64,000 nt of DNA from Paraflavitalea soli. Its GTDB lineage: Bacteria > Bacteroidota > Bacteroidia > Chitinophagales > Chitinophagaceae. The notes beneath the pieces were generated by a model. That model worked only from the letters and a program-made list of their open reading frames with translations, was not told the DNA's origin and searched no databases. The stretch covers positions 5,274,546 to 5,338,545 of the forward strand of contig NZ_CP032157.1 of NCBI RefSeq assembly GCF_003555545.1. Reading direction: 5' to 3'. Below, in pieces: positions 7,124 to 63,715 of the stretch; positions within the stretch are counted from its first letter, which is position 1, and each line of letters begins with the position of its first letter. The position numbers and the translations under genes were made by a program.

Positions 7124-7413
7124 ATGGGCTGCTGCTGCGCGCTATGCGCGGCCGGCGTAGTGTACCGCTTTAGGAGGACAAAATTGGTAGACTAATTACA
7201 CGCAACTGGGTATTTTTTGTATTGAATGACGGGTGTATTCACGGTTCTTAGTACAGAAAATCACTTAGGCTATCAAAATCCCTTTTATTGACATTTATAA
7301 TCAGCATTCTTTTTATATCTTTAGTAACAGTTACGGCTATCTAAAATAGTCACCCTACCATTTCCAATACAATACCTCTGAATAATTGACGTACAGTCCA
7401 CCCTTGTCAATTA
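7124..7413. other. Intergenic region upstream of the Crp-type regulator
   Basis: No gene is seen. A short GC-rich self-complementary stretch (GCGCGCTATGCGCGGCCGGCG, around 7136-7157) follows the ade terminator; the rest is AT-rich and should contain the promoter for the regulator at 7414. A single half of the sulfur palindrome (GGTAGACTAAT near 7187) occurs here without its partner half, so I do not call it a site. Confidence 0.5.
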
Positions 7414-8082
7414 ATGCCTGTTTGTGAACCCCCGACTAAACCCGAAACTCATAGTATGTCTTTTAACCATCAGCCCACCGGTGAGCCAGGCTCTACTACC
7501 CTGACGGAATCGCCCCTGGTAACTTTTGCCCATGCTGTTCATCCTATCAGTGCAGCAGCAAGAGACTATGCCAACAGAAAAAGCTTTCCTTACCGTGTTA
7601 AAAAAGGGGAATTCCTGGTAAGATCGGGAGAGCTTTGCCCTTACATTTATTTTATTCAGAAAGGGATCCTGCGGGGATATGTACAGGACAGCAAAAAAGA
7701 AATTACTACCTGGATCACGGCAGAAAATGAGCTGGCTACTTCTATTACGAGTTTTCACGCACAGCAAAAATCATTTGAGAATATCCAGGCTATTGAAGAA
7801 AGTGAACTGACGGCGCTTCATTATGACGACCTTCAATATTTATATACGCATCACCCGGAAGTGAATATAACAGGGCGGAAACTCCTGGAAAAATATTACC
7901 GGGATGCGGAAGAACGCGCCTATATCGCCCGCCTTACAGAAGCTACTTCGAAATACCAGCGTTTTATTGCTACGAAAAGCTTTATGCTGAACCGGGTGCC
8001 ATTGAAATTTATAGCCTCGTACCTGGGCATGACGCTGGAAACGCTGAGCCGGATCAGGAGCAAGTTATCACACGCGAAATGA
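7414..8082 (+). CDS. Crp/Fnr-family transcriptional regulator
   Basis: The product of 222 residues has a cyclic-nucleotide-binding-like beta-roll (VKKGEFLVRSGELCPYIYFIQKGILRGYV around residues 62-91) and a C-terminal winged helix ending FIASYLGMTLETLSRIRSKL, the recognition helix of the Bacteroidota Crp group. Residues for cAMP binding are not evident, as is common in this group, so the ligand is unknown. A second in-frame ATG at 7456 (MSFNHQPTG) may be the true start; the first 14 residues are low-information. It stands alone, with no obvious target adjacent. The domain architecture is directly visible; regulatory targets are not. Confidence 0.85.
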   Translation: MPVCEPPTKPETHSMSFNHQPTGEPGSTTLTESPLVTFAHAVHPISAAARDYANRKSFPYRVKKGEFLVRSGELCPYIYFIQKGILRGYVQDSKKEITTWITAENELATSITSFHAQQKSFENIQAIEESELTALHYDDLQYLYTHHPEVNITGRKLLEKYYRDAEERAYIARLTEATSKYQRFIATKSFMLNRVPLKFIASYLGMTLETLSRIRSKLSHAK

Positions 8083-8186
8083 GGTCGGCAACCGGCAATT
8101 TTACCTGCTGATAACTGTGGCTGGATAGATTCCCCGACAAAAAACCTGCTTTCACCGGAAATATGCCTTTAATGGCCCTGGTGGTC

Positions 8187-8217
8187 TTGTGCCGGATAGG
8201 GTACTGCTTTAGTTTTG
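8187..8217 (+). promoter_or_regulatory. Bacteroidota-type promoter of the LiaF-like gene
   Basis: A TTG at 8187-8189, 20 nt of spacer, and TAGTTTTG at 8210-8217 match the -33/-7 consensus (TTG ... TAnnTTTG) of Bacteroidota housekeeping promoters. The start codon follows 17 nt later. Confidence 0.6.
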
Positions 8218-8233
8218 TGTAAAATTAAAGGGT

Positions 8234-9013
8234 ATGCAACAGCAGGATTACCAGGACCAGCAGCAAACGGACAACCGCCCGCGGCGTCCTAAACGAAACA
8301 ATGCTTTAGTGGGCTTCCTGCTGCTGATAGCAGGCGCAGTACTATTGATACGGCAGGTGGAAGCGGACCTGATACCACACTGGCTGTTTACCTGGCCGAT
8401 GATACTGATCGTAGTAGGATTTTTTGTGGGTATACAAACGAGGTTCCGGGATATTGGCTGGGTGATCCTGATGGGCGTCGGCGCCTTTTTCCTCGCAGAC
8501 AATGCCTTCCCTGATTCGGATGCCGGACGTTTTGTAATACCTACGGTGGTGTGCGGCGTAGGACTTATCCTGCTGCTGTCGCCCAACAGAAAAAGGTGGC
8601 GCCGCAACAAAGGAGGTTATGAACCTGAAACGGCTTTCTATTACAAGGATGCTGATGAAGAACGGGGCAACGGGGAATCGGATAAGATGGAAGTAGTGTC
8701 GATATTCGGCAATGTAAAAAAAGTAATTTACTCGAAAGACTTTAAAGGGGGGGAAGTAGTATCCGTTTTTGGCGGCGCAGAGGTAAACCTTAGCCAGGCG
8801 GATTTTAAAGGCCCCATCGTATTAGAGATCGTACAAGTATTTGGCGGCACGAAACTCATTGTGCCGCCGCATTGGGTGATCCGCTCGGAAGCGGTAGCCA
8901 TCTTCGGCGGCATTGAAGACAAACGGCCCCCTCAATCGATTACCTCCCCGGATAAAGTATTGGTGATACGCGGTACGGCGCTTTTTGCCGGCATAGAGAT
9001 CAAGAGTTATTAA
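8234..9013 (+). CDS. LiaF-like membrane protein (DUF5668 + LiaF C-terminal domain)
   Basis: The product of 259 residues has a charged, Gln-rich N-terminus (QQQDYQDQQQTDNRPRRPKRN), four hydrophobic helices between about residues 26 and 118 (starting ALVGFLLLIAGAVLLI), a charged linker, and a C-terminal beta-rich domain with repeats of the type VSIFGNVKK, VSVFGGAEV, VQVFGGTKL and VAIFGGIED. This repeated FGG pattern is the right-handed beta-helix of the LiaF C-terminal domain. In Firmicutes LiaF restrains the LiaRS envelope-stress system; in Bacteroidota such genes often sit near LytS/LytTR pairs, as here (the pair begins at 9503). A sensory or modulatory role is inferred from this context only. 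Confidence 0.8.
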   Translation: MQQQDYQDQQQTDNRPRRPKRNNALVGFLLLIAGAVLLIRQVEADLIPHWLFTWPMILIVVGFFVGIQTRFRDIGWVILMGVGAFFLADNAFPDSDAGRFVIPTVVCGVGLILLLSPNRKRWRRNKGGYEPETAFYYKDADEERGNGESDKMEVVSIFGNVKKVIYSKDFKGGEVVSVFGGAEVNLSQADFKGPIVLEIVQVFGGTKLIVPPHWVIRSEAVAIFGGIEDKRPPQSITSPDKVLVIRGTALFAGIEIKSY

Positions 9014-20250: not shown

Positions 20251-20463
20251 AAATTAAAGTTTAAAATTAATGGTGCCTACTCTTTGACAAGGTTTTCGGC
20301 ATCCCCTTAACCGTTTTGAAAGCGACACGGATAACCGCTTCCCGTATAGGTTTGGCCTACCACTACAGGTTTGCTGTACAACAAATAATTTCGCATTTGA
20401 TTTACGCTCAATTCATTTCATACCTGAAAACACTTTGCGGCATTGCGTAGATAAAACTGAATT
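20251..20463. other. Spacer between the two paralogous secreted-protein genes
   Basis: About 210 bp with no gene. Its presence suggests paralogue A has its own promoter instead of being read only from paralogue B. Confidence 0.4.
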
Positions 20464-53008: not shown

Positions 53009-53033
53009 GTTACCGTTGATGTTTGATGGTTAA

Positions 53034-53054
53034 AGTCTATTATTTTACTAGACT
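53034..53054 (-). promoter_or_regulatory. Sulfur palindrome, copy 1 (AGTCTA-N9-TAGACT)
   Basis: AGTCTA (53034-53039), 9 nt, TAGACT (53049-53054). It lies 25 bp before the receptor start codon, between the putative attenuator and the gene. The inner bases extend the symmetry with one mismatch. Confidence 0.65.
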
Positions 53055-53065
53055 ATATGTTGCTT

Positions 53066-53097
53066 AAAAATCCCGATTGCTGATGGGCTCACCGGGA
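53066..53097 (-). terminator. Possible attenuator before the TonB receptor
   Basis: On the minus strand TCCCG, 17 nt and CGGGA are followed by five T residues. The stem is only 5 bp, so this is a weak terminator. It lies 50 nt after the cysteine-rich leader ORF and 58 nt before the receptor gene, where a transcription attenuator would be expected. Confidence 0.4.
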
Positions 53098-53146
53098 AGG
53101 TTGTTAACTAAGGTGAAATACGAAATCGATGCTTCGCAGGGTATTG

Positions 53147-53230
53147 CTATCCACAACAACAGGAGCATTCCAGTGCATGAATGGTAGCAAGACAGAATAG
53201 GGATGTAGCAGGCAGCATACTAAGTTTCAT
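53147..53230 (-). CDS. Cysteine-codon leader peptide, 27 residues, upstream of the TonB receptor
   Basis: A 28-codon frame from ATG at 53228-53230 to TAG at 53147-53149 encodes a peptide beginning MKLSMLPATSLFC and ending HALECSCCCG. Five of 27 codons are for cysteine, four of them within the last six codons (TGC TCC TGT TGT TGT GGA). It lies between palindrome copy 2 and the receptor. It is separated from the receptor start by 138 bp containing a weak terminator-like stem. The parallel with the cysteine-rich ORF before cysH makes chance unlikely. I infer that ribosome stalling at cysteine codons reports cysteine supply. Confidence 0.65.
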   Translation of the reverse strand: MKLSMLPATSLFCLATIHALECSCCCG

Positions 53231-53264
53231 GATTGCACTAAATTACAGGTTATTTTGGATTTAC

Positions 53265-53285
53265 AGTCTATTATTTTAATAGACT
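53265..53285 (-). promoter_or_regulatory. Sulfur palindrome, copy 2 (perfect)
   Basis: AGTCTA (53265-53270), 9 nt, TAGACT (53280-53285), with the inner bases also symmetric so that 9-bp arms surround a 3-base centre. It lies 35 bp upstream of the leader ORF. A degenerate -7 box (TAATTTAG on the minus strand) follows it before the leader. Confidence 0.7.
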
Positions 53286-53329
53286 ATACAGGTACAATAA
53301 ATCCCGGCCTTATTACAACCGGGGTATAC

Positions 53330-54890: not shown

Positions 54891-56564
54891 TTAAATGGTA
54901 ACCCACTGCTCGCGCACTGCAAAATCACCAAAGGTCTCGCCCTGCTTTCTCTTTTTGCTGTAAATGCCCAACAAATTATCCAGCTCCTGCAGGATTGCTG
55001 GTTCATCAAGACTTTCCTTATACTTCTTGTTCAGCCGCATACCATCACGGTCTCCGCCCAGGTGCATATTGTATTGGCCATAAGCGGTGCCTACAAAACC
55101 GATCTCTGCTGCATAAGGCCTTCCGCAGCCATTAGGACATCCCGTCATACGCACCGATATTTCATCATCACTGATCTGGTGCTTGTCCATCAATACCTCG
55201 ATCTTATCGATCAGCCTGGGCAGGTAGCGTTGTGCTTCGGCCAGCGCCAGCGGACAGGTGTTAAAGGCCACACAGGCAATAGCACTCTTCCGTATCGGAC
55301 CTGCTTCATCGGTATGTGCAATGATACCAAATTGCTGCAGAATATCTTCTACTGCTTGCTTATCTTTTGGTTCAATATCGCTGATGATCACATTTTGGTT
55401 ACAAGTGAACCGGAAATTGGCTTTACCCGTTTTGGCAACTTCCAGTAAGGCAGTTTTCAAAGCAGCCTTGCCCTCGTCCAGGATGCGTCCATTCTCCACA
55501 AAAACAGTATAGTACCATTTCCCTTCGTGGTTCTGGTGCCAGCCATAGTAATCAGGGCGATGGGTAAAAGTGTAAGGCTTAGCTTCTTCAAATTTGAAAC
55601 CGCAACGTTTTTCCACCTCTGCCTTAAAAGCTTCTACTCCCATCTTATCAACCGTATATTTTAAGCGGGAAAGCTTACGGTCACTGCGGTTGCCATTGTC
55701 TCGCTGCACCGTGATCACTTCATAAGCCGCTTTCAGGGTATTCTCTTCACCACGCACAAAACCCAGTATTGTTCCCAACCTTGGGTAGGTGCTTGCATTG
55801 CCATGGGTAGTTCCCAGGCCGCCACCAACAGCTACATTGAAACCGATCAGTTTACCGTTTTCAACTATGGCGATCAGGCCAAGGTCATTGGCAAAAACAT
55901 CCACGTCATTATGGGGAGGGATGGCAATGGCGATCTTGAACTTACGGGGCAGGTAACGATCCTGGTACAACGGATCCTCTTCCTGCTTTTTATCCGTCAA
56001 CGGCTTTTCATCGAGCCATACTTCATAATAGGCTTTTGTTTTGGGCAATGCCAGCTGACTCAGTTTACCCGCATACTGAAATACTTCTTCATGAATGGCC
56101 GACTGTTTAGGGTGAGCGCCACATATTACATTCCTGTTCACATCACCACAGGCAGCAATAGCATCCAGGTGGATGGTATTAAAAGCTTGCAAAGTGGGCT
56201 TTACATGGGATTTAAGAATACCATGCAGTTGAACGGTCTGGCGCGTGGTGATCTTGATCACCCCGGTACTATGGTCACCGGCAATATGATGTAATCCCAC
56301 CCATTGTTCTGGTGTAAGAAACCCGCCGGGCAGGCGTAAACGCACCATATAGGAATACAGCCATTCCAGTTTCTTGGCGCTGCGTTCCTCACGGCGGTCG
56401 CGGTCATCCTGCTGGTACATACCATGGAATTTGATCAATGCCTGATCATTTTCGCGGATGGCACCGGTCACTTCATCGTGCAGGCTTTCTTTCAGGGTGC
56501 CACGCAACGCGTTGCTTTCAGTCTTGATCTTCTCAACGGGTGATAAGTTCTTATTCGTACTCAT
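54891..56564 (-). CDS. cysI: Sulfite reductase hemoprotein subunit CysI
   Basis: CysI reduces sulfite to sulfide with six electrons delivered by CysJ, using siroheme coupled to a [4Fe-4S] cluster. The product of 557 residues has two ferredoxin-like repeats, KITTRQTVQLHGI (siroheme contacts), GDVNRNVICGAHP, and the cluster motif AFNTCPLALAEAQRYLPRL with the later MTGCPNGCGRPYAAEIGFVG, where the Cys residues bind the cluster. The order of motifs fits assimilatory NADPH-type CysI. A hairpin terminator separates it from the upstream cysJ, so it probably has its own promoter or depends on read-through. A 37-bp gap leads to the fusion gene. Confidence 0.95.
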   Translation of the reverse strand: MSTNKNLSPVEKIKTESNALRGTLKESLHDEVTGAIRENDQALIKFHGMYQQDDRDRREERSAKKLEWLYSYMVRLRLPGGFLTPEQWVGLHHIAGDHSTGVIKITTRQTVQLHGILKSHVKPTLQAFNTIHLDAIAACGDVNRNVICGAHPKQSAIHEEVFQYAGKLSQLALPKTKAYYEVWLDEKPLTDKKQEEDPLYQDRYLPRKFKIAIAIPPHNDVDVFANDLGLIAIVENGKLIGFNVAVGGGLGTTHGNASTYPRLGTILGFVRGEENTLKAAYEVITVQRDNGNRSDRKLSRLKYTVDKMGVEAFKAEVEKRCGFKFEEAKPYTFTHRPDYYGWHQNHEGKWYYTVFVENGRILDEGKAALKTALLEVAKTGKANFRFTCNQNVIISDIEPKDKQAVEDILQQFGIIAHTDEAGPIRKSAIACVAFNTCPLALAEAQRYLPRLIDKIEVLMDKHQISDDEISVRMTGCPNGCGRPYAAEIGFVGTAYGQYNMHLGGDRDGMRLNKKYKESLDEPAILQELDNLLGIYSKKRKQGETFGDFAVREQWVTI

Positions 56565-56612
56565 GATATATTCAGGTTCTGGGCTGTTTATCGTTAATAG
56601 TCACTAATAAAA

Positions 56613-56661
56613 AGAGGTGACACCTTCCCTCTGCCGCGAAAACGAAAGGTGTCACCTCTTC
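56613..56661 (-). terminator. Hairpin between cysJ and cysI
   Basis: Long arms (AAGAGGTGACACCTT / AAGGTGTCACCTCTT) surround a loop of about 19 nt and are followed on the minus strand by TTTTTATTAG. It should end or attenuate the cysH-to-cysJ transcript before cysI. Confidence 0.8.
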
Positions 56662-56680
56662 GCTTCCGATCCGGTACTTA

Positions 56681-58402
56681 CTAATACACGTCTTTCAGGT
56701 ATCTCCCTTCTTCTTTCAACTGATCCAGGTACTGGATAGCTTCTTCATCGGTTTTGCCGCTATAGCGTTGGATCACCTGCAACAAGGCATATTCCACATC
56801 CACACTCATGGGTTCTTTGGCGCCACAGATATAGATATAAGCGCCACTGCTGATCCACTTCCACAATTCAGCAGCCTTCTCCAGGATGCGGTGCTGTACG
56901 TATATTTTAAACTTCTGATCACGGGAGAAAGCAAGGTTAACATGTGTCAACGCGCCGGTTTGCAACCAGTTCTGTATTTCTGTCTGGTACAGGAAATCCG
57001 TCACAAAATGCTGATCACCGAAGAAGAGCCAGTTGCGTCCTTCAGCACCGGTGGCATCCCGCTCGGCCAGGAAGGAACGGAAAGGCGCAATACCTGTTCC
57101 GGGGCCGATCATGATGACATCCTTATTGGCTTCTGGCAGTCGGAACTGGTTATTCTTGTGCACGTAAAATTCTATTTCGCTGTCCGGAGACAAATGCTGC
57201 GACAGGAAGTCTGAGCAGAGCCCGTATTTGGCTTCCTGGTTGATATAGAAAGTATCCCTGGCTACAGTAATATGTACCTCTCCGCTATGAGCGCTGGGCG
57301 AAGAGGAGATGGAATAAAGCCGTGGGGTAATGGGTTCAAGAATGGCCACCACTTCGTGAAACTGCTGCACATCCTTTACCGGGTAGATCTTCAGCAGGTC
57401 TACGAGGCCGATCTTGGTTTCGGGAATGTCTTGTTTTATGATAGCCGCATATTGCTTTACCACCCGCTCAGGCAACCAGGCAACATTGATGCGCTTCTTT
57501 AAATGATTGAAAATAGAATCTGTTTCATTGCGGAAAGTAATGGGTGTTCCATTATTGCTGAATGCCAATGCCAGGATAGTATCCACCACCTGTTTGGGAT
57601 TCTCCGGTATGATGCCGATAGAATCACCGGGCTGGTAGTCGACCTCTTCGTCTACACCGATTTCGATATGGTAGGTCTCTTTGGAAGAGCCGCGGTCATT
57701 GAGGTTGATATTGGTGAGTACAGTACCCTTGTATATTTTTTTACCGGTCGTTTTTTTAGCTACCGGTGTACCGGCTGTCTGGGCAGGAGCACTGCTGCCA
57801 GCCGTGGTGAGCTGTGTCAACACGTTGGAAAACCAGCTGCTGGCTTCCGATTGGTAATCGGTATCGCAGCACTGCAGGGATACAATGCGCTGACCACCCA
57901 GCTTTTGCAGTTGTGAGTCTACATCCTCCCCTGCCTTACAGAATAAAGGGTAGGAAGTATCACCCAATGCCAGTACACCAAATTTCAGCTGGTTCAACTT
58001 AAAACCATTCTGGTGGATATGGTCATAAAACTTTTTGGCGGTTGCCGGTGGTTCCCCTTCACCTTGCGTGCTGATAATGGTAAAAAAGTATTCTTCCTTG
58101 GAAAGGTCGTTGAGCCTGTATTGATCGAGGCTTACAATCTTTGCATTGATACCACTCTTTTTTGCCTGGGAAGCGAAATCAGTAGCCAACTTCTTGGAGT
58201 TGCCGGTTTCCGTACCATAGGCAATAGTGATCTTCTGCACTGCCGGTTTCACCTCAGCAGCAACAGCCACGGGTGCAGCCTGCTGCACCGGCTGGGTTTG
58301 CGCCAGCAGGCCAGCCAGGTATCCATTCATCCAGATCAACTCTTCCCTGGAGGATGTATTTACCAACTCAAGCAGCGACTTCAATTTAGGCTCTACTAAC
58401 AT
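56681..58402 (-). CDS. cysJ: Sulfite reductase flavoprotein subunit CysJ
   Basis: CysJ passes electrons from NADPH through FAD and FMN to CysI. The product of 573 residues has an N-terminal helical and Ala/Pro-rich extension (about 55 residues), a flavodoxin domain (ITIAYGTETGNSKKLATDFA, TIISTQGEGEPPATAKKFYDHI, LALGDTSYPLFCKAG), then the FAD-binding region (PRLYSISSSPSAHSGEVHITV) and the NADPH site (IMIGPGTGIAPFRSFLAER, YICGAKEPMSVDVEYALLQVI), ending GRYLKDVY. It overlaps cobA by 17 bp and so is translated in step with it. Confidence 0.96.
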   Translation of the reverse strand: MLVEPKLKSLLELVNTSSREELIWMNGYLAGLLAQTQPVQQAAPVAVAAEVKPAVQKITIAYGTETGNSKKLATDFASQAKKSGINAKIVSLDQYRLNDLSKEEYFFTIISTQGEGEPPATAKKFYDHIHQNGFKLNQLKFGVLALGDTSYPLFCKAGEDVDSQLQKLGGQRIVSLQCCDTDYQSEASSWFSNVLTQLTTAGSSAPAQTAGTPVAKKTTGKKIYKGTVLTNINLNDRGSSKETYHIEIGVDEEVDYQPGDSIGIIPENPKQVVDTILALAFSNNGTPITFRNETDSIFNHLKKRINVAWLPERVVKQYAAIIKQDIPETKIGLVDLLKIYPVKDVQQFHEVVAILEPITPRLYSISSSPSAHSGEVHITVARDTFYINQEAKYGLCSDFLSQHLSPDSEIEFYVHKNNQFRLPEANKDVIMIGPGTGIAPFRSFLAERDATGAEGRNWLFFGDQHFVTDFLYQTEIQNWLQTGALTHVNLAFSRDQKFKIYVQHRILEKAAELWKWISSGAYIYICGAKEPMSVDVEYALLQVIQRYSGKTDEEAIQYLDQLKEEGRYLKDVY

Positions 58403-59240
58403 GGTCTTTTACTTTTTCAGTATGGTCGGTTATGGTTGTAAACAACTTGGCAACGGGCTTAAAGTAATCTTCCCGGCTATCACTGTTGGCCAGCCAGTTG
58501 AACTGCTCATGCAGTCCTACTACCTTGCCAATGATTACCAGGGAAGGCGAAATGAATTTCTTGCCTTTCAGCTGTTCGTTGTACGCGTAAATATTGGTCA
58601 CATATACATTCTGCAAGGGCGTGGTGGCCTGTTCAATGACCGCCAGCAATTTATCCACAGCAATATTGTTTTTGGTGAGGTTGGCCACTACCCCTTCCAA
58701 TGTTTCGGAGGACATATAGAATACCAACGTATCGTCCGTGGCCGCCAGTTCTCGCCAGTAATCTTCTGTTACCACATCCGATTTGTAATAGGTGAGCAAG
58801 CGTACTGCAGTGGTATACCCCCGGGCTGTGAGTGGAATGCCCGCACAGGCAGCAGCACCCAAAGCAGCGGTTACACCAGGAACAATTTCATAAGGGATAT
58901 GATGGGCAGCCAATACTTCCAACTCATCCAGTATATTGGAGAATATGGAAACATCCCCACCTTTCAATCTTACTACCAGCTTGCCCTGGTGACCATATTC
59001 AACCAACAGTTCATTGATCGTTTCCTGGGGGGTGGAAGCGCCGCGACGGCATTGCTTACCTACATATATCAGCTCAGCATCCTTCCGCACATAAGCTTTC
59101 AGGATATCCTCACTCACCAGGCGGTCAGTCAATACCACATCAGCCTGTTGCAGGTAACGGGCCACTTTAATAGTGAGCAACTCAGGATCACCCGGACCTG
59201 CGCCCGCCAAAATCACTTTCCCTGTTTGGTTTGTACTCAT
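58386..59240 (-). CDS. cobA: Uroporphyrinogen-III C-methyltransferase CobA (SUMT)
   Basis: CobA methylates uroporphyrinogen III twice to form precorrin-2, which the fused siroheme synthase downstream oxidises and metallates. The product of 284 residues has KVILAGAGPGDPELLTIKVARYLQQADVVLTDRLV, GKQCRRGASTPQETINELLVEYG, VVRLKGGDVSIFSNILDELEVLA, IPYEIVPGVTAALGAAACAGIPLTARGY, the complete SUMT motif set. The start ATG at 59240 lies 2 bp after palindrome copy 4. The 3' end overlaps cysJ by 17 bp. The last 25 residues (DYFKPVAKLFTTITDHTEKVK) are a non-conserved tail. Confidence 0.95.
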   Translation of the reverse strand: MSTNQTGKVILAGAGPGDPELLTIKVARYLQQADVVLTDRLVSEDILKAYVRKDAELIYVGKQCRRGASTPQETINELLVEYGHQGKLVVRLKGGDVSIFSNILDELEVLAAHHIPYEIVPGVTAALGAAACAGIPLTARGYTTAVRLLTYYKSDVVTEDYWRELAATDDTLVFYMSSETLEGVVANLTKNNIAVDKLLAVIEQATTPLQNVYVTNIYAYNEQLKGKKFISPSLVIIGKVVGLHEQFNWLANSDSREDYFKPVAKLFTTITDHTEKVKDHVSRA

Positions 59241-59242
59241 TA

Positions 59243-59263
59243 TGTCTACTTTTTTAGTAGATT
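59243..59263 (-). promoter_or_regulatory. Sulfur palindrome, copy 4, directly before cobA
   Basis: TGTCTA (59243-59248), 9 nt, TAGATT (59258-59263). The site lies only 2 bp from the cobA start codon, so it could block ribosome access or act as an operator at a downstream position. Confidence 0.6.
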
Positions 59264-59296
59264 AAAAGGGCAAAAAAATACTGATACATTTATTCA

Positions 59297-59330
59297 CTCG
59301 CTGCTTCAATGTCTTGCTGCCTCGTTGCTT
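59297..59330. repeat. Degenerate 8-bp tandem repeat
   Basis: CTCGCTGCTTCAATGTCTTG continues with CTGCCTCGTTGCTT, an inverted version of the repeat at 9427-9460. It fills the gap between the cysN stop codon and the cobA promoter region. Confidence 0.5.
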
Positions 59331-60572
59331 TTACTGTATCATGCAAGCCCCTACTGTTACATGACTGGTTTCATCGATCAAAATAGCGCCACCATTGGCC
59401 CTTAATGCCTGGTATGCATCGTAGGGAATCGGAGAGGCTGTTTTAATCGTCGCTTTTATCACATCATTCAGCACAGCTTGTTGGGGTGCTTCATTTTTCT
59501 CCAGGGTATTTACATCCAGCTTGTATTCGATATTCCGTACTACAGAGCGCACCACCCGGCTATTGATCTGCAACAGGTACTTATTGCCGGGCACCAATGG
59601 CTTATTGTCCATCCAGCACAGCAGTACTTCCAGTTCCTGGGCCGTCTTTACCGGTTGTGCCGTATTGACGATCACATCACCCCGGCTGATATCGATATTA
59701 TCTTCCAGGTGCAGCACTACGCTCTGTGGTGCAAATGCTTCTTTCACTTCCTTACCACCCAGTTCAATAGCTTTGATCTTGCTTTGGATACCGGCGGGTT
59801 GTACTGTGATGGCATCGCCTACTCGGTAAACGCCGCTGATGATCTTACCGGCATAGCCACGGTAATCGTGCAGGTCATCCGTTTGAGGACGGATCACATA
59901 TTGAACAGGAAATCTTGCATTGGTAAGGTCGATCGTATCCTGCACTTCTACCTGCTCCAGGAAATGCAGCAGGGAAGGCCCTTCATACCAGCGCAGCTTT
60001 TCTGACTTCTCCACAATGTTATCTCCCTGCAAGGCACTGAGAGGGATATAGGTAACCTGTTTCAATCCTAATGATTGGGCCACTTTGGCATAGTCAATCA
60101 CAATATTATTATAGATATCCTGCGAGTAGTTTACCAGGTCCATTTTGTTAATGGCCACTACTACATGCGGCAGGTTCAAGAGGGAAGCAATAATAGAATG
60201 ACGGCGGGTTTGCTCCACTACTCCATTGCGTGCATCGATCAGGATAATGGCCAGATCGGCATTGGAGGCACCGGTCACCATGTTGCGGGTATATTGAATA
60301 TGCCCCGGTGCATCGGCAATAATGAACTTGCGTTTGGGAGTAGAGAAATATTTGTAGGCTACATCAATGGTGATGCCCTGCTCACGCTCTGCACGCAAAC
60401 CATCGGTAAGCAAAGCCAGGTCGATCTCTCCGTCTTCCTTATTCTTGCTCTGCCGTTCAATAGCTTCCAGCTGATCGATCATTATACTCTTACTGTCATA
60501 CAACAACCGGCCAATCAGGGTGCTTTTGCCATCATCAACACTTCCGGCAGTTATGAATCGTAGTAAGTCCAT
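59331..60572 (-). CDS. cysN: Sulfate adenylyltransferase subunit 1 (GTPase) CysN
   Basis: CysN is the GTPase partner that drives ATP sulfurylase CysD in making adenosine-5'-phosphosulfate. The product of 413 residues has GSVDDGKSTLIGRLLYDSK (P-loop), REQGITIDVAYKYF (switch I), DAPGHIQYTRNMVTGASNADLAI (G3), INKMDLV (G4), then elongation-factor-like beta-barrel domains. It ends without an APS kinase (CysC) domain, which fits a pathway that reduces APS directly. It follows cysD by 87 bp. The stop codon abuts a degenerate repeat before cobA. Confidence 0.96.
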   Translation of the reverse strand: MDLLRFITAGSVDDGKSTLIGRLLYDSKSIMIDQLEAIERQSKNKEDGEIDLALLTDGLRAEREQGITIDVAYKYFSTPKRKFIIADAPGHIQYTRNMVTGASNADLAIILIDARNGVVEQTRRHSIIASLLNLPHVVVAINKMDLVNYSQDIYNNIVIDYAKVAQSLGLKQVTYIPLSALQGDNIVEKSEKLRWYEGPSLLHFLEQVEVQDTIDLTNARFPVQYVIRPQTDDLHDYRGYAGKIISGVYRVGDAITVQPAGIQSKIKAIELGGKEVKEAFAPQSVVLHLEDNIDISRGDVIVNTAQPVKTAQELEVLLCWMDNKPLVPGNKYLLQINSRVVRSVVRNIEYKLDVNTLEKNEAPQQAVLNDVIKATIKTASPIPYDAYQALRANGGAILIDETSHVTVGACMIQ

Positions 60573-60659
60573 CTATGATAAGTTTATGTTGTTTTTATGT
60601 ATGTTCTGTAAAAGCCACGAGCCCCTCTTCCTGTATTGTGCTCGCAGCTCGAAGCTGCT

Positions 60660-61568
60660 TTAGAAATATCCATTCTTCTTTCTGTCTTCCATCGCCGCTT
60701 CAGATACTTTGTCATCAATGCGGGTCTCGCCTCTTTCACTGGTCTTGGTAGCGGTGATCTCCGTAATGATATCGTCAATGGTAGAAGCACCCGATTCCAC
60801 AGCCGCCGTACAGGTCATATCCCCTACTGTACGGTAACGCACTTTTTTAGTCAGCACTTTATCAGAAGCTTCCAGTTGGATAAAGTCTGAAACAGCTACC
60901 AGCTGACCTTCGTGCTCTATCACTTCCCGTTCGTGGGAGAAATAAATGGAAGGCAGTTCTATTTTTTCACGACGGATATAATTCCATACATCCAGTTCCG
61001 TCCAGTTACTGATAGGGAATACACGTACATTCTCACCTTTGTGGATCTTACCGTTATAAGTATTCCACAATTCGGGACGTTGCAGCTTGGGATCCCACTG
61101 GCCAAACTCATCGCGCACAGAGAATATCCTTTCTTTGGCCCTTGCTTTTTCTTCGTCGCGGCGGGCGCCGCCTATGCAGGCGTCAAACTTAAACTCTTCA
61201 ATAGTATCCAGGAGGGTGAAGGTTTGCAAAGCATTACGGCTCGCAAACTTTCCTTTGGGTTCTGTCAGTTGCTTTGCCTTGATAGTATCACCCACATGCC
61301 TTACGATCAGCTTCTCGCCCAGGGTTTCAGCCAGCCTGTCGCGGTAGTCCAGTGCTTCCTTGAAATTGTGGCCCGTGTCGATATGCACCAGGGGAAAAGG
61401 GAATTTACCGGGACGAAATGCTTTCAACGCCAGCTGCACCAGTGTGATAGAATCCTTACCACCCGAAAACAACAGGGCAGGTTTTTCAAACTGGCCAGCC
61501 ACTTCACGAAAGATATGTATCGCTTCCGACTCCAACTGATCCAGGTAATCTAATCTGTAAGCACTCAT
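60660..61568 (-). CDS. cysD: Sulfate adenylyltransferase subunit 2 CysD
   Basis: CysD is the catalytic ATP sulfurylase subunit. The product of 302 residues has the PP-loop LLFSGGKDSITLVQLALKAF, HIDTGHNFKEALDYRD, GGARRDEEKARAKERIFSVRDEFGQWDPKLQRPELWN, VFPISNWTELDVWNYIRREKIELPSIYFSHER, and the C-terminal MTCTAAVESGASTIDDIITEI, ending RKKNGYF. It starts 35 bp after cysH. A hairpin (GCAGCT / AGCTGC) lies in the 87-bp gap before cysN. Confidence 0.97.
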   Translation of the reverse strand: MSAYRLDYLDQLESEAIHIFREVAGQFEKPALLFSGGKDSITLVQLALKAFRPGKFPFPLVHIDTGHNFKEALDYRDRLAETLGEKLIVRHVGDTIKAKQLTEPKGKFASRNALQTFTLLDTIEEFKFDACIGGARRDEEKARAKERIFSVRDEFGQWDPKLQRPELWNTYNGKIHKGENVRVFPISNWTELDVWNYIRREKIELPSIYFSHEREVIEHEGQLVAVSDFIQLEASDKVLTKKVRYRTVGDMTCTAAVESGASTIDDIITEITATKTSERGETRIDDKVSEAAMEDRKKNGYF

Positions 61569-61603: not shown

Positions 61604-62320
61604 TCAACTATGCACATGCAGGCCACATTCCTTTTTGGCGGCATCTTCCCACCACCACCTGCCTGCCCGGAAATCCTCTCCCGGTCTGATGGCCCTGGTA
61701 CAAGGGGCACATCCAATGCTCACAAACCCTTTATCATGCAGGGGATTGTAAGGTACATTGTTATCATCAATATACTTACGCACCTGCTCAGTTGTCCAAT
61801 GCAATAAAGGATTGTACTTAATGATCTGGTTGCCTTCGTCCCATTCCACAGTAGCCAGGTTATTCCTGTCAGGAGAATGTTCTGCCCGCAAACCGGTGAT
61901 CCAAATAGCATTGCCCTTTAAGGCTCTTTTTAAGGGCTCTACTTTGCGGATAAAGCAGCATTTTTTCCGGTGATCTACCGACTCATAAAAAGCATTGGGC
62001 CCATGCTCCTGCACAAACGCTTCCAGGGAAGCATTGTCGGGATAATAGGCTTTTACATTCGACTGGTATTTAGCGTTGGTGCTGCTCCACACAGAATACG
62101 TTTCAGCAAAAAGCCTTCCGGTATCCAGCGTAAATACACTGACAGGCAGGCTATTGCTTAATATTTCGTGGGCAATCACCTGGTCTTCAAAACTAAAACT
62201 GGTAGAAAAGGTCACCTGCCCCGGAAACTGCTTTGCCAGCAATGACAAAAACTCAGTAAGAGGTAGTCCACTTGACTGGTAGGTTAATTCGGGGATATAT
62301 GTTTGGAGTGACGTATTCAT
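61604..62320 (-). CDS. cysH: Adenylyl-sulfate (APS) reductase, assimilatory CysH type
   Basis: The enzyme reduces activated sulfate to sulfite using thioredoxin. The product of 238 residues has VTFSTSFSFEDQVIAHEIL (PP-loop-like), FTLDTGRLFAETY, and the C-terminal ECGLH with the catalytic Cys. It also has the paired cysteine motif CC...C-x-x-C (KKCCFIRKVEPLKRAL and GCAPCTRAI), which binds a [4Fe-4S] cluster in APS reductases and is absent from PAPS-specific CysH. No cysC is present in the locus, in agreement with direct use of APS. It is the first gene of the operon, after a cysteine-codon leader and palindrome copy 3. Confidence 0.93.
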   Translation of the reverse strand: MNTSLQTYIPELTYQSSGLPLTEFLSLLAKQFPGQVTFSTSFSFEDQVIAHEILSNSLPVSVFTLDTGRLFAETYSVWSSTNAKYQSNVKAYYPDNASLEAFVQEHGPNAFYESVDHRKKCCFIRKVEPLKRALKGNAIWITGLRAEHSPDRNNLATVEWDEGNQIIKYNPLLHWTTEQVRKYIDDNNVPYNPLHDKGFVSIGCAPCTRAIRPGEDFRAGRWWWEDAAKKECGLHVHS

Positions 62321-62388
62321 GTATATTGACTATTCAGCGGTAATAAAAGATAAAGACGGGGAAAGACAAATACTAACAGGAGTATGAA

Positions 62389-62457
62389 TCAACAGCAACA
62401 ACAATAGTTGTAACAATATGAGAAGGTATTGTATTGCATCGCGATGGTGTGTAGCAT
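62389..62457 (-). CDS. Cysteine-codon leader peptide, 22 residues, upstream of cysH
   Basis: A 23-codon frame from ATG at 62455-62457 to TGA at 62389-62391 encodes a peptide that begins MLHTIAMQYNTFS and ends YCYNYCCCC. The last four sense codons are all cysteine (TGT TGT TGC TGT) and a fifth cysteine lies four codons earlier. A promoter with a perfect -7 box (TATCTTTG) lies 24 bp upstream, so the ORF would be the first thing translated on the cysH mRNA. It ends 68 bp before the cysH start. There is no obvious terminator stem in those 68 bp, so control may act by coupled translation or Rho. I infer cysteine-sensing attenuation. Confidence 0.72.
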   Translation of the reverse strand: MLHTIAMQYNTFSYCYNYCCCC

Positions 62458-62480: not shown

Positions 62481-62511
62481 CAAAGATAAGGCCCGGTGCG
62501 GAAACAGACAA
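62481..62511 (-). promoter_or_regulatory. Promoter of the cysH operon
   Basis: On the minus strand TTG (plus 62509-62511), 20 nt of spacer and TATCTTTG (plus 62481-62488) fit the Bacteroidota -33/-7 consensus exactly. Palindrome copy 3 lies immediately upstream (3 bp from the -33 TTG). Confidence 0.7.
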
Positions 62512-62514
62512 CTT

Positions 62515-62535
62515 TTTCTACCTCTCAGGTAGACT
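62515..62535 (-). promoter_or_regulatory. Sulfur palindrome, copy 3, next to the cysH promoter
   Basis: TTTCTA (62515-62520), 9 nt, TAGACT (62530-62535), with the inner bases CCT / AGG extending the symmetry to 7-bp arms. It abuts the -33 box, a position suiting an activator or a repressor. Confidence 0.65.
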
Positions 62536-62593: not shown

Positions 62594-63715
62594 TTATTTC
62601 GATGATACACAACGGAATCCGGTATGCTCCAGGCCCGTGTCGGGGGAGGTTTTCATGCGTGAAGTCACACGATACCCTTTGCAATAGGAAGCATTACACA
62701 TAAATGATCCGCCCCGCACTACTTTCTTGGGCACAGTAGGCTCCATGGGGTCATTGCTTTGGGCAGGCCCTGCAGGATCAGTAGCAACGGTATTTTTCTG
62801 TGCAGCATACCAGTTTGCATCATACCAGTCACTGCACCATTCCCATACATTGCCAGCCATATCGTACAATCCGAAAACATTGGGTGCAAAGGATTGCACA
62901 GGCGCCAGTGACTGGTACTGATCCCAGCCGGTATTTTTATCGGGAAAACTGCCTTGCCAGGTATTGGCTTTTGGCTTGCCTGTTTCTATATCTTCCGTGC
63001 CCCAGGGATAAACAGCTTGCTGCAGGCCTCCCCTGGCGGCGTATTCCCATTCGGCTTCAGAAGGCAGCCTCTTGCCTGCCCATTTAGCATAGGCCATAGC
63101 ATCATACCAGGAAATATGTACAACGGGATAATGATCTTTGCCTTTAATACTGCTTCCAGGCCCCTGGGGGTGCTGCCAGTTGGCCCCTTTTTTCCAGGAC
63201 CACCATTGTGAGACATCGTCTAACGGTACCGCATGAGCAGGTGGTGTAAATACAAGAGAGGAAGGCACCAGCACATCATCCGATGGCCTGGCCGTACCCG
63301 GGGGAACCTGCTTTTTGATCTCCTCCCAATCTGGCTTTTTTTCTGCCGTGGTAATATAACCGGTGGCTTTTACAAACTGGCGAAACTGTGCATTGGTCAC
63401 TTCTGTAGCATCGATCCAGAAGCCTGATACCGTTACTGTATGTTGGGGATATTCATCGGGGCGGCCTTCATTGTCTGTTGCACCCATGCCATATGAATGG
63501 CCGGCTATCCATACCATGCCTTTGTGAGAAACACTGTCTGTGGAGGCAAAGGAACTATCAGTAGCACCTGCCGGAAATCGCGCAGGCAGGTTGGACTCAC
63601 AAGAGACCGCTGTGTCTTTTTTTGCGGAAGTGTCCACTTTCGGATCGGCAGACTGGCAGGCACCAATACAACCCAGTACAACATAAAACAGCAGGCTTCT
63701 TTTCATACGGCCCAC
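62594..63715 (-). CDS. Formylglycine-generating enzyme (SUMF1 family) lipoprotein
   Basis: The product of 373 residues has a lipoprotein-like signal (LLFYVVLGCIGACQSADP), an FGE/SUMF1 core (MVWIAGHSYGMG, WIDATEVTNAQFRQFVKATGY, RLPSEAEWEYAARGG, AGNVWEWCSDWYDANWY) and a C-terminal VVRGGSFMCNASYCKGYRVTSRM. The two cysteines in GGSFMCNASYC align with the copper-binding active-site pair of genuine FGE, which converts a sulfatase Cys to formylglycine. This differs from GldJ in this window, which lacks them. It lies just upstream of the sulfur locus on the same strand, which makes a link with sulfate ester scavenging attractive. Methionines at 63715 and 63706 are both possible starts. Confidence 0.87.
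   Translation of the reverse strand: MGRMKRSLLFYVVLGCIGACQSADPKVDTSAKKDTAVSCESNLPARFPAGATDSSFASTDSVSHKGMVWIAGHSYGMGATDNEGRPDEYPQHTVTVSGFWIDATEVTNAQFRQFVKATGYITTAEKKPDWEEIKKQVPPGTARPSDDVLVPSSLVFTPPAHAVPLDDVSQWWSWKKGANWQHPQGPGSSIKGKDHYPVVHISWYDAMAYAKWAGKRLPSEAEWEYAARGGLQQAVYPWGTEDIETGKPKANTWQGSFPDKNTGWDQYQSLAPVQSFAPNVFGLYDMAGNVWEWCSDWYDANWYAAQKNTVATDPAGPAQSNDPMEPTVPKKVVRGGSFMCNASYCKGYRVTSRMKTSPDTGLEHTGFRCVSSK

What the first reader, a model, noticed from the sequence alone, without database searches (positions are those of the whole stretch)
62389..62457. A 22-codon leader ORF ending in four consecutive cysteine codons precedes cysH
Seen: the ORF sits right after a consensus promoter and ends ...Y-C-Y-N-Y-C-C-C-C-stop (TGT TGT TGC TGT), 68 bp before the APS reductase gene. 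Established: leader peptides rich in the end-product amino acid control biosynthetic operons by attenuation, and cysteine-codon-rich mini-ORFs acting on sulfur genes are known from mycobacteria. Inference: this organism senses cysteine by ribosome stalling on this ORF to control sulfate reduction. I know of no such description in Bacteroidota. No terminator stem is visible before cysH, so the mechanism may be translational coupling or Rho dependent.
Basis: partly seen in the sequence, partly recalled or inferred. Interest (0 to 1): 0.92.

Follow-up and report, generated by a model that had tools for sequence, protein, structure and literature searches.

The report
Cysteine-codon leader ORF before cysH
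A tiny gene ending in a run of cysteine codons sits just before the sulfate-reduction genes in many bacteria of one family, and it probably lets the ribosome itself measure cysteine and switch those genes on when cysteine runs short.

Summary
In detail: minus strand 62457-62389 encodes MLHTIAMQYNTFSYCYNYCCCC-stop, 68 nt before cysH, behind a Bacteroidota-type promoter. It is not chance: by one fixed criterion 72 of 110 same-family cysH loci examined (32 of 47 genera) carry such an ORF, against 1 of 110 on the reverse strand and 1.24 (max 4) in shuffles. The peptides share little but Cys near the end. In the window's genus the ORF is conserved (55 of 69 columns, no indels) and the spacer is not (27 of 77). 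A cysteine-sensing leader is strongly supported; the output step is not settled. Intrinsic terminators are rare at cysH; the spacer is C-rich, G-poor and little structured, which favours Rho-dependent termination. Sequestration of the cysH start is not general but not excluded. The same kind of leader precedes metY in eight relatives and two TonB receptors of this genome, one in the window (53230-53147) with a terminator-like hairpin. Such leaders, with Rho suggested, were predicted in Actinobacteria in 2005; my searches found no report of cysteine leaders in Bacteroidota.

The parts
62389..62457 (-). Leader ORF, 22 codons, MLHTIAMQYNTFSYCYNYCCCC, Cys run directly before the TGA stop
   Evidence: similar ORFs in 72 of 110 family loci
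62389..62403 (-). Cys codon run plus stop (TGT TGT TGC TGT TGA), the proposed sensing site
   Evidence: unchanged in all 5 genomes of the genus
62481..62511 (-). Bacteroidota-type promoter: TTG (62511-62509), 20-nt spacer, TATCTTTG -7 box (62488-62481); start site not mapped
   Evidence: TAnnTTTG lies within 90 nt upstream of the leader ATG in 60 of 72 positives, 2 of 72 in a control window
62321..62388 (-). 68-nt spacer between leader stop and cysH, C 16 / G 7; candidate Rho entry (rut) region
   Evidence: same bias over the 72 leader-positive loci versus controls
61604..62320 (-). cysH (APS reductase), first gene of the operon
54891..61568 (-). Rest of the operon: cysD, cysN, SUMT-type methylase, sulfite reductase flavoprotein, sulfite reductase haemoprotein
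62518..62532 (-). Operator-like palindrome CTACCTGAGAGGTAG upstream of the promoter, perhaps a second, protein-based control layer
62268..62282 (-). Second operator-like site inside cysH codons (CTACCAGTCAAGTGG)
53147..53230 (-). Second Cys-rich leader ORF in the window, MKLSMLPATSLFCLATIHALECSCCCG, before a TonB-dependent receptor gene (53008-50057)
   Evidence: a Cys leader also in 2 of the other 4 genomes of the genus
53066..53096 (-). Terminator-like hairpin plus T run after that second leader
   Evidence: folding; coordinates; the strict scan (loop at most 8) does not list it

Best explanation
It is a cysteine-sensing leader ORF (ribosome-mediated attenuator). Inferred working: transcription starts about 20 nt upstream, a ribosome loads on the leader at once, and the supply of charged tRNA-Cys decides whether it runs to the stop codon or stalls in the terminal Cys codons. 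With enough cysteine the ribosome leaves at the stop and the bare, C-rich, G-poor spacer lets Rho load and terminate before or early in cysH. When cysteine is short the stalled ribosome, whose footprint reaches over the stop codon into the C-richest first nucleotides of the spacer, keeps Rho off long enough for polymerase and the first cysH ribosome to get through, so sulfate reduction is switched on. Shown here: an ORF with a conserved Cys run near its stop, close behind a promoter; frame kept in close relatives; scarcity of terminators; spacer composition; a rho gene. Inferred: translation, stalling, sign of control, Rho. Within this, cysteine-responsive attenuation is about 0.85 likely and Rho as the output about 0.45.
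For: 72 of 110 family loci (32 of 47 genera) versus about 1 in controls. Cys is the last residue in 55 of 72 and lies within two residues of it in 71 of 72; 3-8 Cys per leader; TGT 276 and TGC 121 times, so the amino acid and not one codon is kept. Genus alignment (5 genomes): ORF 55 of 69 columns invariant, no indels; spacer 27 of 77 with 13 gap columns. A -7 box a median 26 nt before the leader ATG in 60 of 72. Spacer C 23.7 / G 11.3 % versus 18.1 / 14.9 % in 119 control 5' regions (p 1e-14; one spacer per genus, n 32, against the same controls p 4e-10) and 17.2 / 16.3 % before cysH in 38 leader-negative loci. Spacer C minus G exceeds same-locus controls in 51 of the 60 loci that had any; C peaks at 28-31 % in the first 20 nt after the stop; spacer plus 30 nt of cysH fold less than mononucleotide shuffles, mean z +0.88. 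Terminators in 2 of 72 at a strict setting. rho gene present. Cys leaders also precede metY (8 loci) and TonB receptors.
Against: No expression, ribosome-profiling or termination data. 38 of 110 family loci lack the leader, as do 19 of 21 loci of other families, so it is dispensable. A ribosome stalled at the first of several Cys codons would leave most of the spacer bare, which weakens the shielding argument; the C-rich spacer could also be a low-structure zone for another reason. In genus g3 (6 genomes) the ORF itself is less kept: 27 of 75 columns invariant with 12 gap columns, against 17 of 89 with 30 in the spacer. A looser terminator setting gave 8 of 72 versus 3.2 (sd 1.6) in shuffles. 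Complementarity between leader tail and spacer is slightly above chance (genus mean z -0.52, p 0.002), and the leader lowers cysH-start accessibility by more than 0.2 in 17 of 69 loci, above all 15 shuffle rounds (6-15), so a structural mechanism is not excluded in some genera.
Confidence: 0.8

Rival explanations
1. Translational attenuation as described for mycobacteria: the leader RNA pairs with the cysH start region, and a ribosome stalled on the Cys codons frees it.
For: Slight excess complementarity of the Cys tail to the spacer (genus mean z -0.52, p 0.002) and to the cysH start (mean z -0.44, p 0.03), with striking single cases. 17 of 69 loci lose over 0.2 start accessibility through the real leader, against 6-15 in 15 rounds with shuffled leaders. 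9-mers complementary to the Cys run occur in 3 of 72 spacers and 0 of 165 controls (p 0.03).
Against: On average the real leader hides the start no more than a shuffled one (0.490 vs 0.517 unpaired, p 0.18). Shorter segments complementary to the Cys run are not significantly enriched versus control 5' regions (6-mers p 0.13, 7-mers p 0.08). The spacer folds less than shuffles.
Confidence: 0.25
2. Classical attenuation with an intrinsic terminator between leader and cysH.
For: This is what the sequence suggests at the TonB receptor in the same window and in 3 of the 10 named Flavobacterium cysH loci. A loose setting finds 8 of 72 at cysH versus 3.2 in shuffles.
Against: At cysH no minus-strand terminator is listed in the window and 2 of 72 relatives have one at a strict setting.
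Confidence: 0.05
3. Translational coupling or reinitiation: ribosomes finishing the leader restart at cysH.
For: Flavobacterium mRNAs lack Shine-Dalgarno sequences (PMC9723704 passage), so coupling is conceivable.
Against: Gaps have a median of 64.5 nt, minimum 36, whereas the leader-to-gene distance peaks at 11-14 bp in Bacteroidetes (PMC4833913 passages). It also gives the wrong sign: cysteine shortage would lower cysH.
Confidence: 0.07
4. The ORF makes a functional Cys-rich peptide, or is a chance ORF.
For: The N-terminal part is conserved inside single genera.
Against: Across genera little but Cys near the stop is kept and lengths vary; controls give about 1 hit in 110. The same kind of ORF recurs before other genes of sulfur or transport function.
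Confidence: 0.05

Closest known systems
Cys-run leader peptides of Actinobacteria (Mycobacterium, Propionibacterium acnes, Bifidobacterium longum; predicted 2005, PMC1262725, passages read; mycobacterial ones shown to be cysteine-responsive attenuators by Canestrari 2020, not held here, known from citing passages and recall)
   Same: Short ORF with Cys codons next to the stop, upstream of sulfur or cysteine genes, no terminator; Rho suggested in 2005 by analogy to tna.
   Different: Other phylum. Mycobacterial ones are called leaderless short ORFs (title cited), and a later paper describes translational control (passage); here a 5' UTR is predicted before the ATG. The 2005 paper calls its polypyrimidine motifs not conserved, whereas here the C-rich bias holds over one spacer from each of 32 genera. 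Operator-like palindromes lie near the promoter here.
tnaC leader of E. coli
   Same: Leader of similar length (24 aa), Rho site directly after the stop, stalled ribosome blocks Rho (PMC8429421 passage).
   Different: TnaC stalls with free Trp at the stop codon; here no peptide motif is conserved and stalling would come from uncharged tRNA-Cys.
uORFC-8-2 motif before cysS in Rhodobacterales (PMC8632094, passage)
   Same: Two tandem Cys codons in a uORF, predicted ribosome-mediated attenuation.
   Different: Structured, ends in a U run read as an intrinsic terminator, and precedes a tRNA synthetase gene.
Leader-peptide attenuators of Flavobacterium (PMC9723704, passage; Flavobacterium cysH loci L138, L142, L154 here)
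   Same: Same phylum; in my loci Cys/Met-rich leaders lie before the same gene cysH.
   Different: Tandem leaders, each followed by an intrinsic terminator, with the Cys codons away from the stop.

Membership tests
Ribosome-mediated leader-peptide attenuator (general) | Short ORF upstream of the operon, rich in codons for the end product | tested here: met
Ribosome-mediated leader-peptide attenuator (general) | Regulatory codons and frame kept by selection | tested here: met
   (weaker in genus g3)
Ribosome-mediated leader-peptide attenuator (general) | Expression responds to amino-acid limitation | not testable with these tools
   no expression data
Classical trp/his-type transcription attenuator | Terminator hairpin plus U run before the first gene | tested here: not met
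   (at cysH); competing antiterminator not tested
Mycobacterial polycysteine leaderless uORF | ORF starts at the transcript's first nucleotide | tested here: not met
   predicted -7 box a median 26 nt before the ATG in 60 of 72; start site itself not mapped
Mycobacterial polycysteine leaderless uORF | Leader pairs with the start region of the downstream gene | tested here: inconclusive
tnaC-type Rho-dependent attenuator | C-rich, G-poor, little-structured tract directly after the leader stop | tested here: met
tnaC-type Rho-dependent attenuator | Rho factor present | tested here: met
tnaC-type Rho-dependent attenuator | Rho terminates there; stalled ribosome protects | not testable with these tools
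   needs Rho inhibition and 3'-end mapping
Known structured cis-regulatory RNA (Rfam 15) | Covariance-model match in the leader region at gathering score | tested here: not met
   only DUF805b at 20274-20309 in the window

The most novel reading that the evidence does not exclude
Bacteroidota possess a ribosome-read cysteine regulon: the same poly-Cys sensor has been placed before sulfate reduction (cysH), sulfhydrylation (metY), TonB receptors and a porin, with interchangeable outputs (a Rho-type C-rich spacer at cysH and metY, an intrinsic terminator at the TonB receptor and in Flavobacterium), layered on a sulfur-regulon repressor whose operators flank the modules.
Probability: 0.4. Interest if true: 0.78.

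Novelty: new variant of a known kind. Interest (0 to 1): 0.63.

Why it matters
Amino-acid sensing by leader peptides is well studied in Proteobacteria and Actinobacteria and hardly in Bacteroidota. A family-wide, easily recognised cysteine sensor would give this phylum a clear test case for Rho-dependent attenuation and for how sulfur uptake is regulated. It would also give a way to find unknown sulfur-source transporters, such as the TonB receptor at 50-53 kb, by the cysteine codons in front of them, and it suggests that the same sensor arose in unrelated phyla.

Tried and rejected
A hairpin inside the leader (GYAAC-N4-GUUGY), striking in genera g1, g3 and g72, is not a family feature: with non-Cys codons permuted the genus mean z is -0.29 and 18 of 32 genera are negative. 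Sequestration of the cysH start by the leader: mean effect not different from shuffled leaders; a fairer per-replicate count is above chance (17 of 69 vs 6-15). Anti-Cys-run segments looked enriched against mononucleotide shuffles, but against real control 5' regions 6-mers gave 16 of 72 vs 25 of 165 (p 0.13), 7-mers 9 of 72 vs 10 of 165 (p 0.08), 9-mers 3 of 72 vs 0 of 165 (p 0.03). Poly-Cys ORFs elsewhere in the genome: of 9 CCCC-stop sites only the cysH one has an ATG-started frame; leaders with a shorter or broken run would be missed and two were met in other ways. Leaders before cysH in other families: 2 of 21 phylum-search loci met the criterion, both poor. Of 80 named loci 11 met it, one (L150) could not be scored, and at least three of the 11 (L101, L102, L112) look identical to loci already among the 110. 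A tree of leader gain and loss was not built, because most loci were fetched without the full gene. Rows dropped or doubtful: 3 loci with spacers over 120 nt; the 12 of 72 leaders without a -7 box in the distance median; 12 of 72 loci without a usable control in the paired test; three of the 110 starts are not ATG (G157, G233, G332) and the start chosen for G161 is too far downstream, which makes its 175-nt spacer the longest.

Full report
What is there. On the minus strand, 62457-62389 encodes MLHTIAMQYNTFSYCYNYCCCC-stop. The stop is 68 nt before the ATG of cysH at 62320. cysH matches the APS-reductase model above its cut-off and is followed by cysD, cysN, an SUMT-type methylase, a sulfite reductase flavoprotein and a sulfite reductase haemoprotein. 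The promoter is of Bacteroidota type: TTG, 20 nt, TATCTTTG. Rfam has no match here at gathering score, and the scan lists no minus-strand terminator.

Is it more than chance? cysH was found in 247 of 394 family genomes searched. I examined 110 of these 247: the 30 best loci and 80 picked by me from the listed matches with an eye to spreading genera. Criterion: an ATG ORF of 8-50 codons ending at least 8 nt before cysH, at least three Cys in the last 12 residues and one CC pair. It is met in 72 of 110 loci and 32 of 47 genera. On the reverse strand it is met in 1 of 110; in 50 rounds of dinucleotide shuffling in 1.24 on average and 4 at most. The peptides share little but the Cys residues, for example MFRSHTIHIMYISCCNKYCCCC, MQSRIIIHVMHTCCCCNTCCSC, MKFLSSILYMCTPCNCMCCCC and MVRMIINMCCCPCCK. 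Cys is the last residue in 55 of 72 and lies within two residues of it in 71 of 72. Median length is 21.5 codons; TGT and TGC are both used, 276 and 121 times. A TAnnTTTG box lies within 90 nt upstream of the leader ATG in 60 of 72 loci, median 26 nt, against 2 of 72 in a control window, so the ORF probably begins close to the transcript's 5' end.

In the window's genus (5 genomes) the ORF has 55 of 69 invariant columns and no indels, while the spacer has 27 of 77 invariant columns and 13 gap columns. In genus g72 (9 genomes) the figures are 45 of 69 with one codon-sized indel, and 21 of 94 with 31 gap columns. In genus g3 (6 genomes) the contrast is weaker: 27 of 75 with 12 gap columns, and 17 of 89 with 30. 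The four terminal Cys codons do not change in the window's genus. Elsewhere in the 8.44-Mb genome 8 other CCCC-stop sites exist and none has an ATG-started frame.

How the signal could be passed on. Intrinsic terminators are not the rule at cysH: 2 of 72 at a strict setting, 8 of 72 at a loose one against 3.2 in shuffles. The spacer (median 64.5 nt, minimum 36) has 23.7 % C and 11.3 % G. Controls are 119 other 5' regions of the 110 loci (18.1 and 14.9 %; p 1e-14; one spacer per genus against the same controls p 4e-10) and 38 leader-negative cysH upstream regions (17.2 and 16.3 %). Against controls from the same locus the bias holds in 51 of the 60 loci that had one. C is highest, 28-31 %, in the first 20 nt after the stop, and spacer plus 30 nt of cysH fold less than mononucleotide shuffles (mean z +0.88). 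That is the signature expected of a Rho entry site directly behind the stop codon, as described for tnaC (PMC8429421, passage). The genome has a rho gene. Results that do not fit a pure Rho picture: slight excess complementarity of the Cys tail to spacer and start region; 17 of 69 loci in which the leader hides the start, above all 15 rounds with shuffled leaders (6-15); 9-mers complementary to the run in 3 of 72 spacers and 0 of 165 controls, though 6- and 7-mers are not significantly enriched. The mean effect of the leader on start accessibility is not significant. Reinitiation is unlikely: gaps are far longer than the 11-14 bp at which leader genes peak in Bacteroidetes (PMC4833913, passages), and it has the wrong sign.

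The sensor is used more than once. A stricter scan of the 110 loci for further Cys-run ORFs gave nine hits, eight of them 46-119 nt before a gene that I recognise by sequence as metY; the relative in L121 carries the Pfam Cys/Met-metabolism domain. Seven of the eight have Met-Pro shortly after the run and four end exactly in CCCMP or CCCCMP. In five of the eight, and in L121, the letters around the stop read ATGCC-N-stop-GGCAT, a palindrome. Their spacers average 21.5 % C and 11.1 % G. In the window, a second leader MKLSMLPATSLFCLATIHALECSCCCG (53230-53147) precedes a TonB-dependent receptor next to the operon. Two of the other four genomes of the genus have a Cys leader there, two have none, and nine more distant relatives show weaker candidates or none; in the three genus members with a leader a hairpin followed by T residues lies between leader and gene. 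A third Cys leader precedes another TonB receptor at G000:C1:16990 and is kept in one relative as MKTMQPTSPVKAMAFIRTIHSSCNFTCCC. A Mucilaginibacter locus has seven Cys codons before a Porin_O_P gene. Three of the ten named Flavobacterium loci have tandem Cys/Met leaders before cysH, each followed by an intrinsic terminator; in L138 and L142 I read the second leader by eye. Outside the family the cysH leader is rare: 2 poor hits in 21 loci of other families, and 11 of 80 named loci, mostly Chitinophagaceae or unclassified Bacteroidota/Chitinophagales records, but including Rufibacter ruber.

What is known. Seliverstov and co-workers (PMC1262725; [quoted passage not shown] acnes and B. longum, and proposed Rho by analogy to tna, noting that the polypyrimidine motifs were not conserved. 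Canestrari 2020 (not held; known from citing passages and from recall) showed mycobacterial ones to be cysteine-responsive. A cysS uORF with a predicted terminator is described in Rhodobacterales (PMC8632094, passage). In Bacteroidota, the F. psychrophilum transcriptome paper reports 'strong clues' for leader-peptide attenuation of amino-acid operons; its main text holds the word cysteine once, in 'cysteine protease' (PMC9723704, passages; supplements not readable here). Searches on leader peptides with cysteine, Bacteroidetes, Bacteroidota, Flavobacterium and Chitinophag- gave no report of a cysteine leader in this phylum; only open-licence papers are covered, and searches list 12 of 77 and 12 of 19 papers.

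Verdict. Cysteine-responsive attenuation about 0.85; Rho as output about 0.45; start sequestration about 0.25.

Noticed in passing
window 62518-62532 and 62268-62282 (minus); G000:C1 sites 16551, 3916177, 4788567: Operator-like palindrome CTAC-N7-GTAG near the promoters of cysH, two TonB receptors and a CarboxypepD-type gene; in 71 of 110 family cysH loci with at most one mismatch, 107 sites versus 11 in shuffles, in 53 of 72 leader-positive and 18 of 38 leader-negative loci. It suggests a sulfur-regulon repressor.
   Followed up: partly
L309 (G000:C1:4773613): The only Rrf2-family match over the cut-off in the genome (scores below the CymR and IscR cut-offs) lies near a gene that looks like S-adenosylhomocysteine hydrolase (my reading of its sequence); candidate operator-binding protein, untested.
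   Followed up: partly
window 53009-53300 (minus) and L312: Leader plus hairpin before the TonB receptor sit between two similar palindromes (53265-53286 and 53034-53055, two mismatches to the operator core by eye); in genome G003 one palindrome and no leader remain, as if the module had been lost between the repeats.
   Followed up: partly
L064, L276, L278, L287, L288, L121: metY leaders end in Met-Pro-stop within a palindrome ATGCC-N-stop-GGCAT, a small hairpin with the stop codon in its loop; function unknown.
   Followed up: partly
L138, L142, L154 (Flavobacterium): Tandem Cys/Met leaders before cysH, each followed by an intrinsic terminator.
   Followed up: partly
L152 at 7125-8413: Mucilaginibacter leader with seven terminal Cys codons before a Porin_O_P gene, about 3.2 kb downstream of the cysH start; spacer nearly free of G.
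   Followed up: partly
L106: Rufibacter ruber has a cysH 67 % identical in the best segment to the query, with a typical Cys leader: possible transfer of the operon with its leader.
   Followed up: no
window 20274-20309 (minus): DUF805b RNA match, 46.5 bits, the only Rfam hit in the window.
   Followed up: no
window 62594-63715 (minus): Gene upstream of the leader encodes an FGE-sulfatase-domain protein with a lipoprotein-like N terminus (the N-terminal reading is mine).
   Followed up: no
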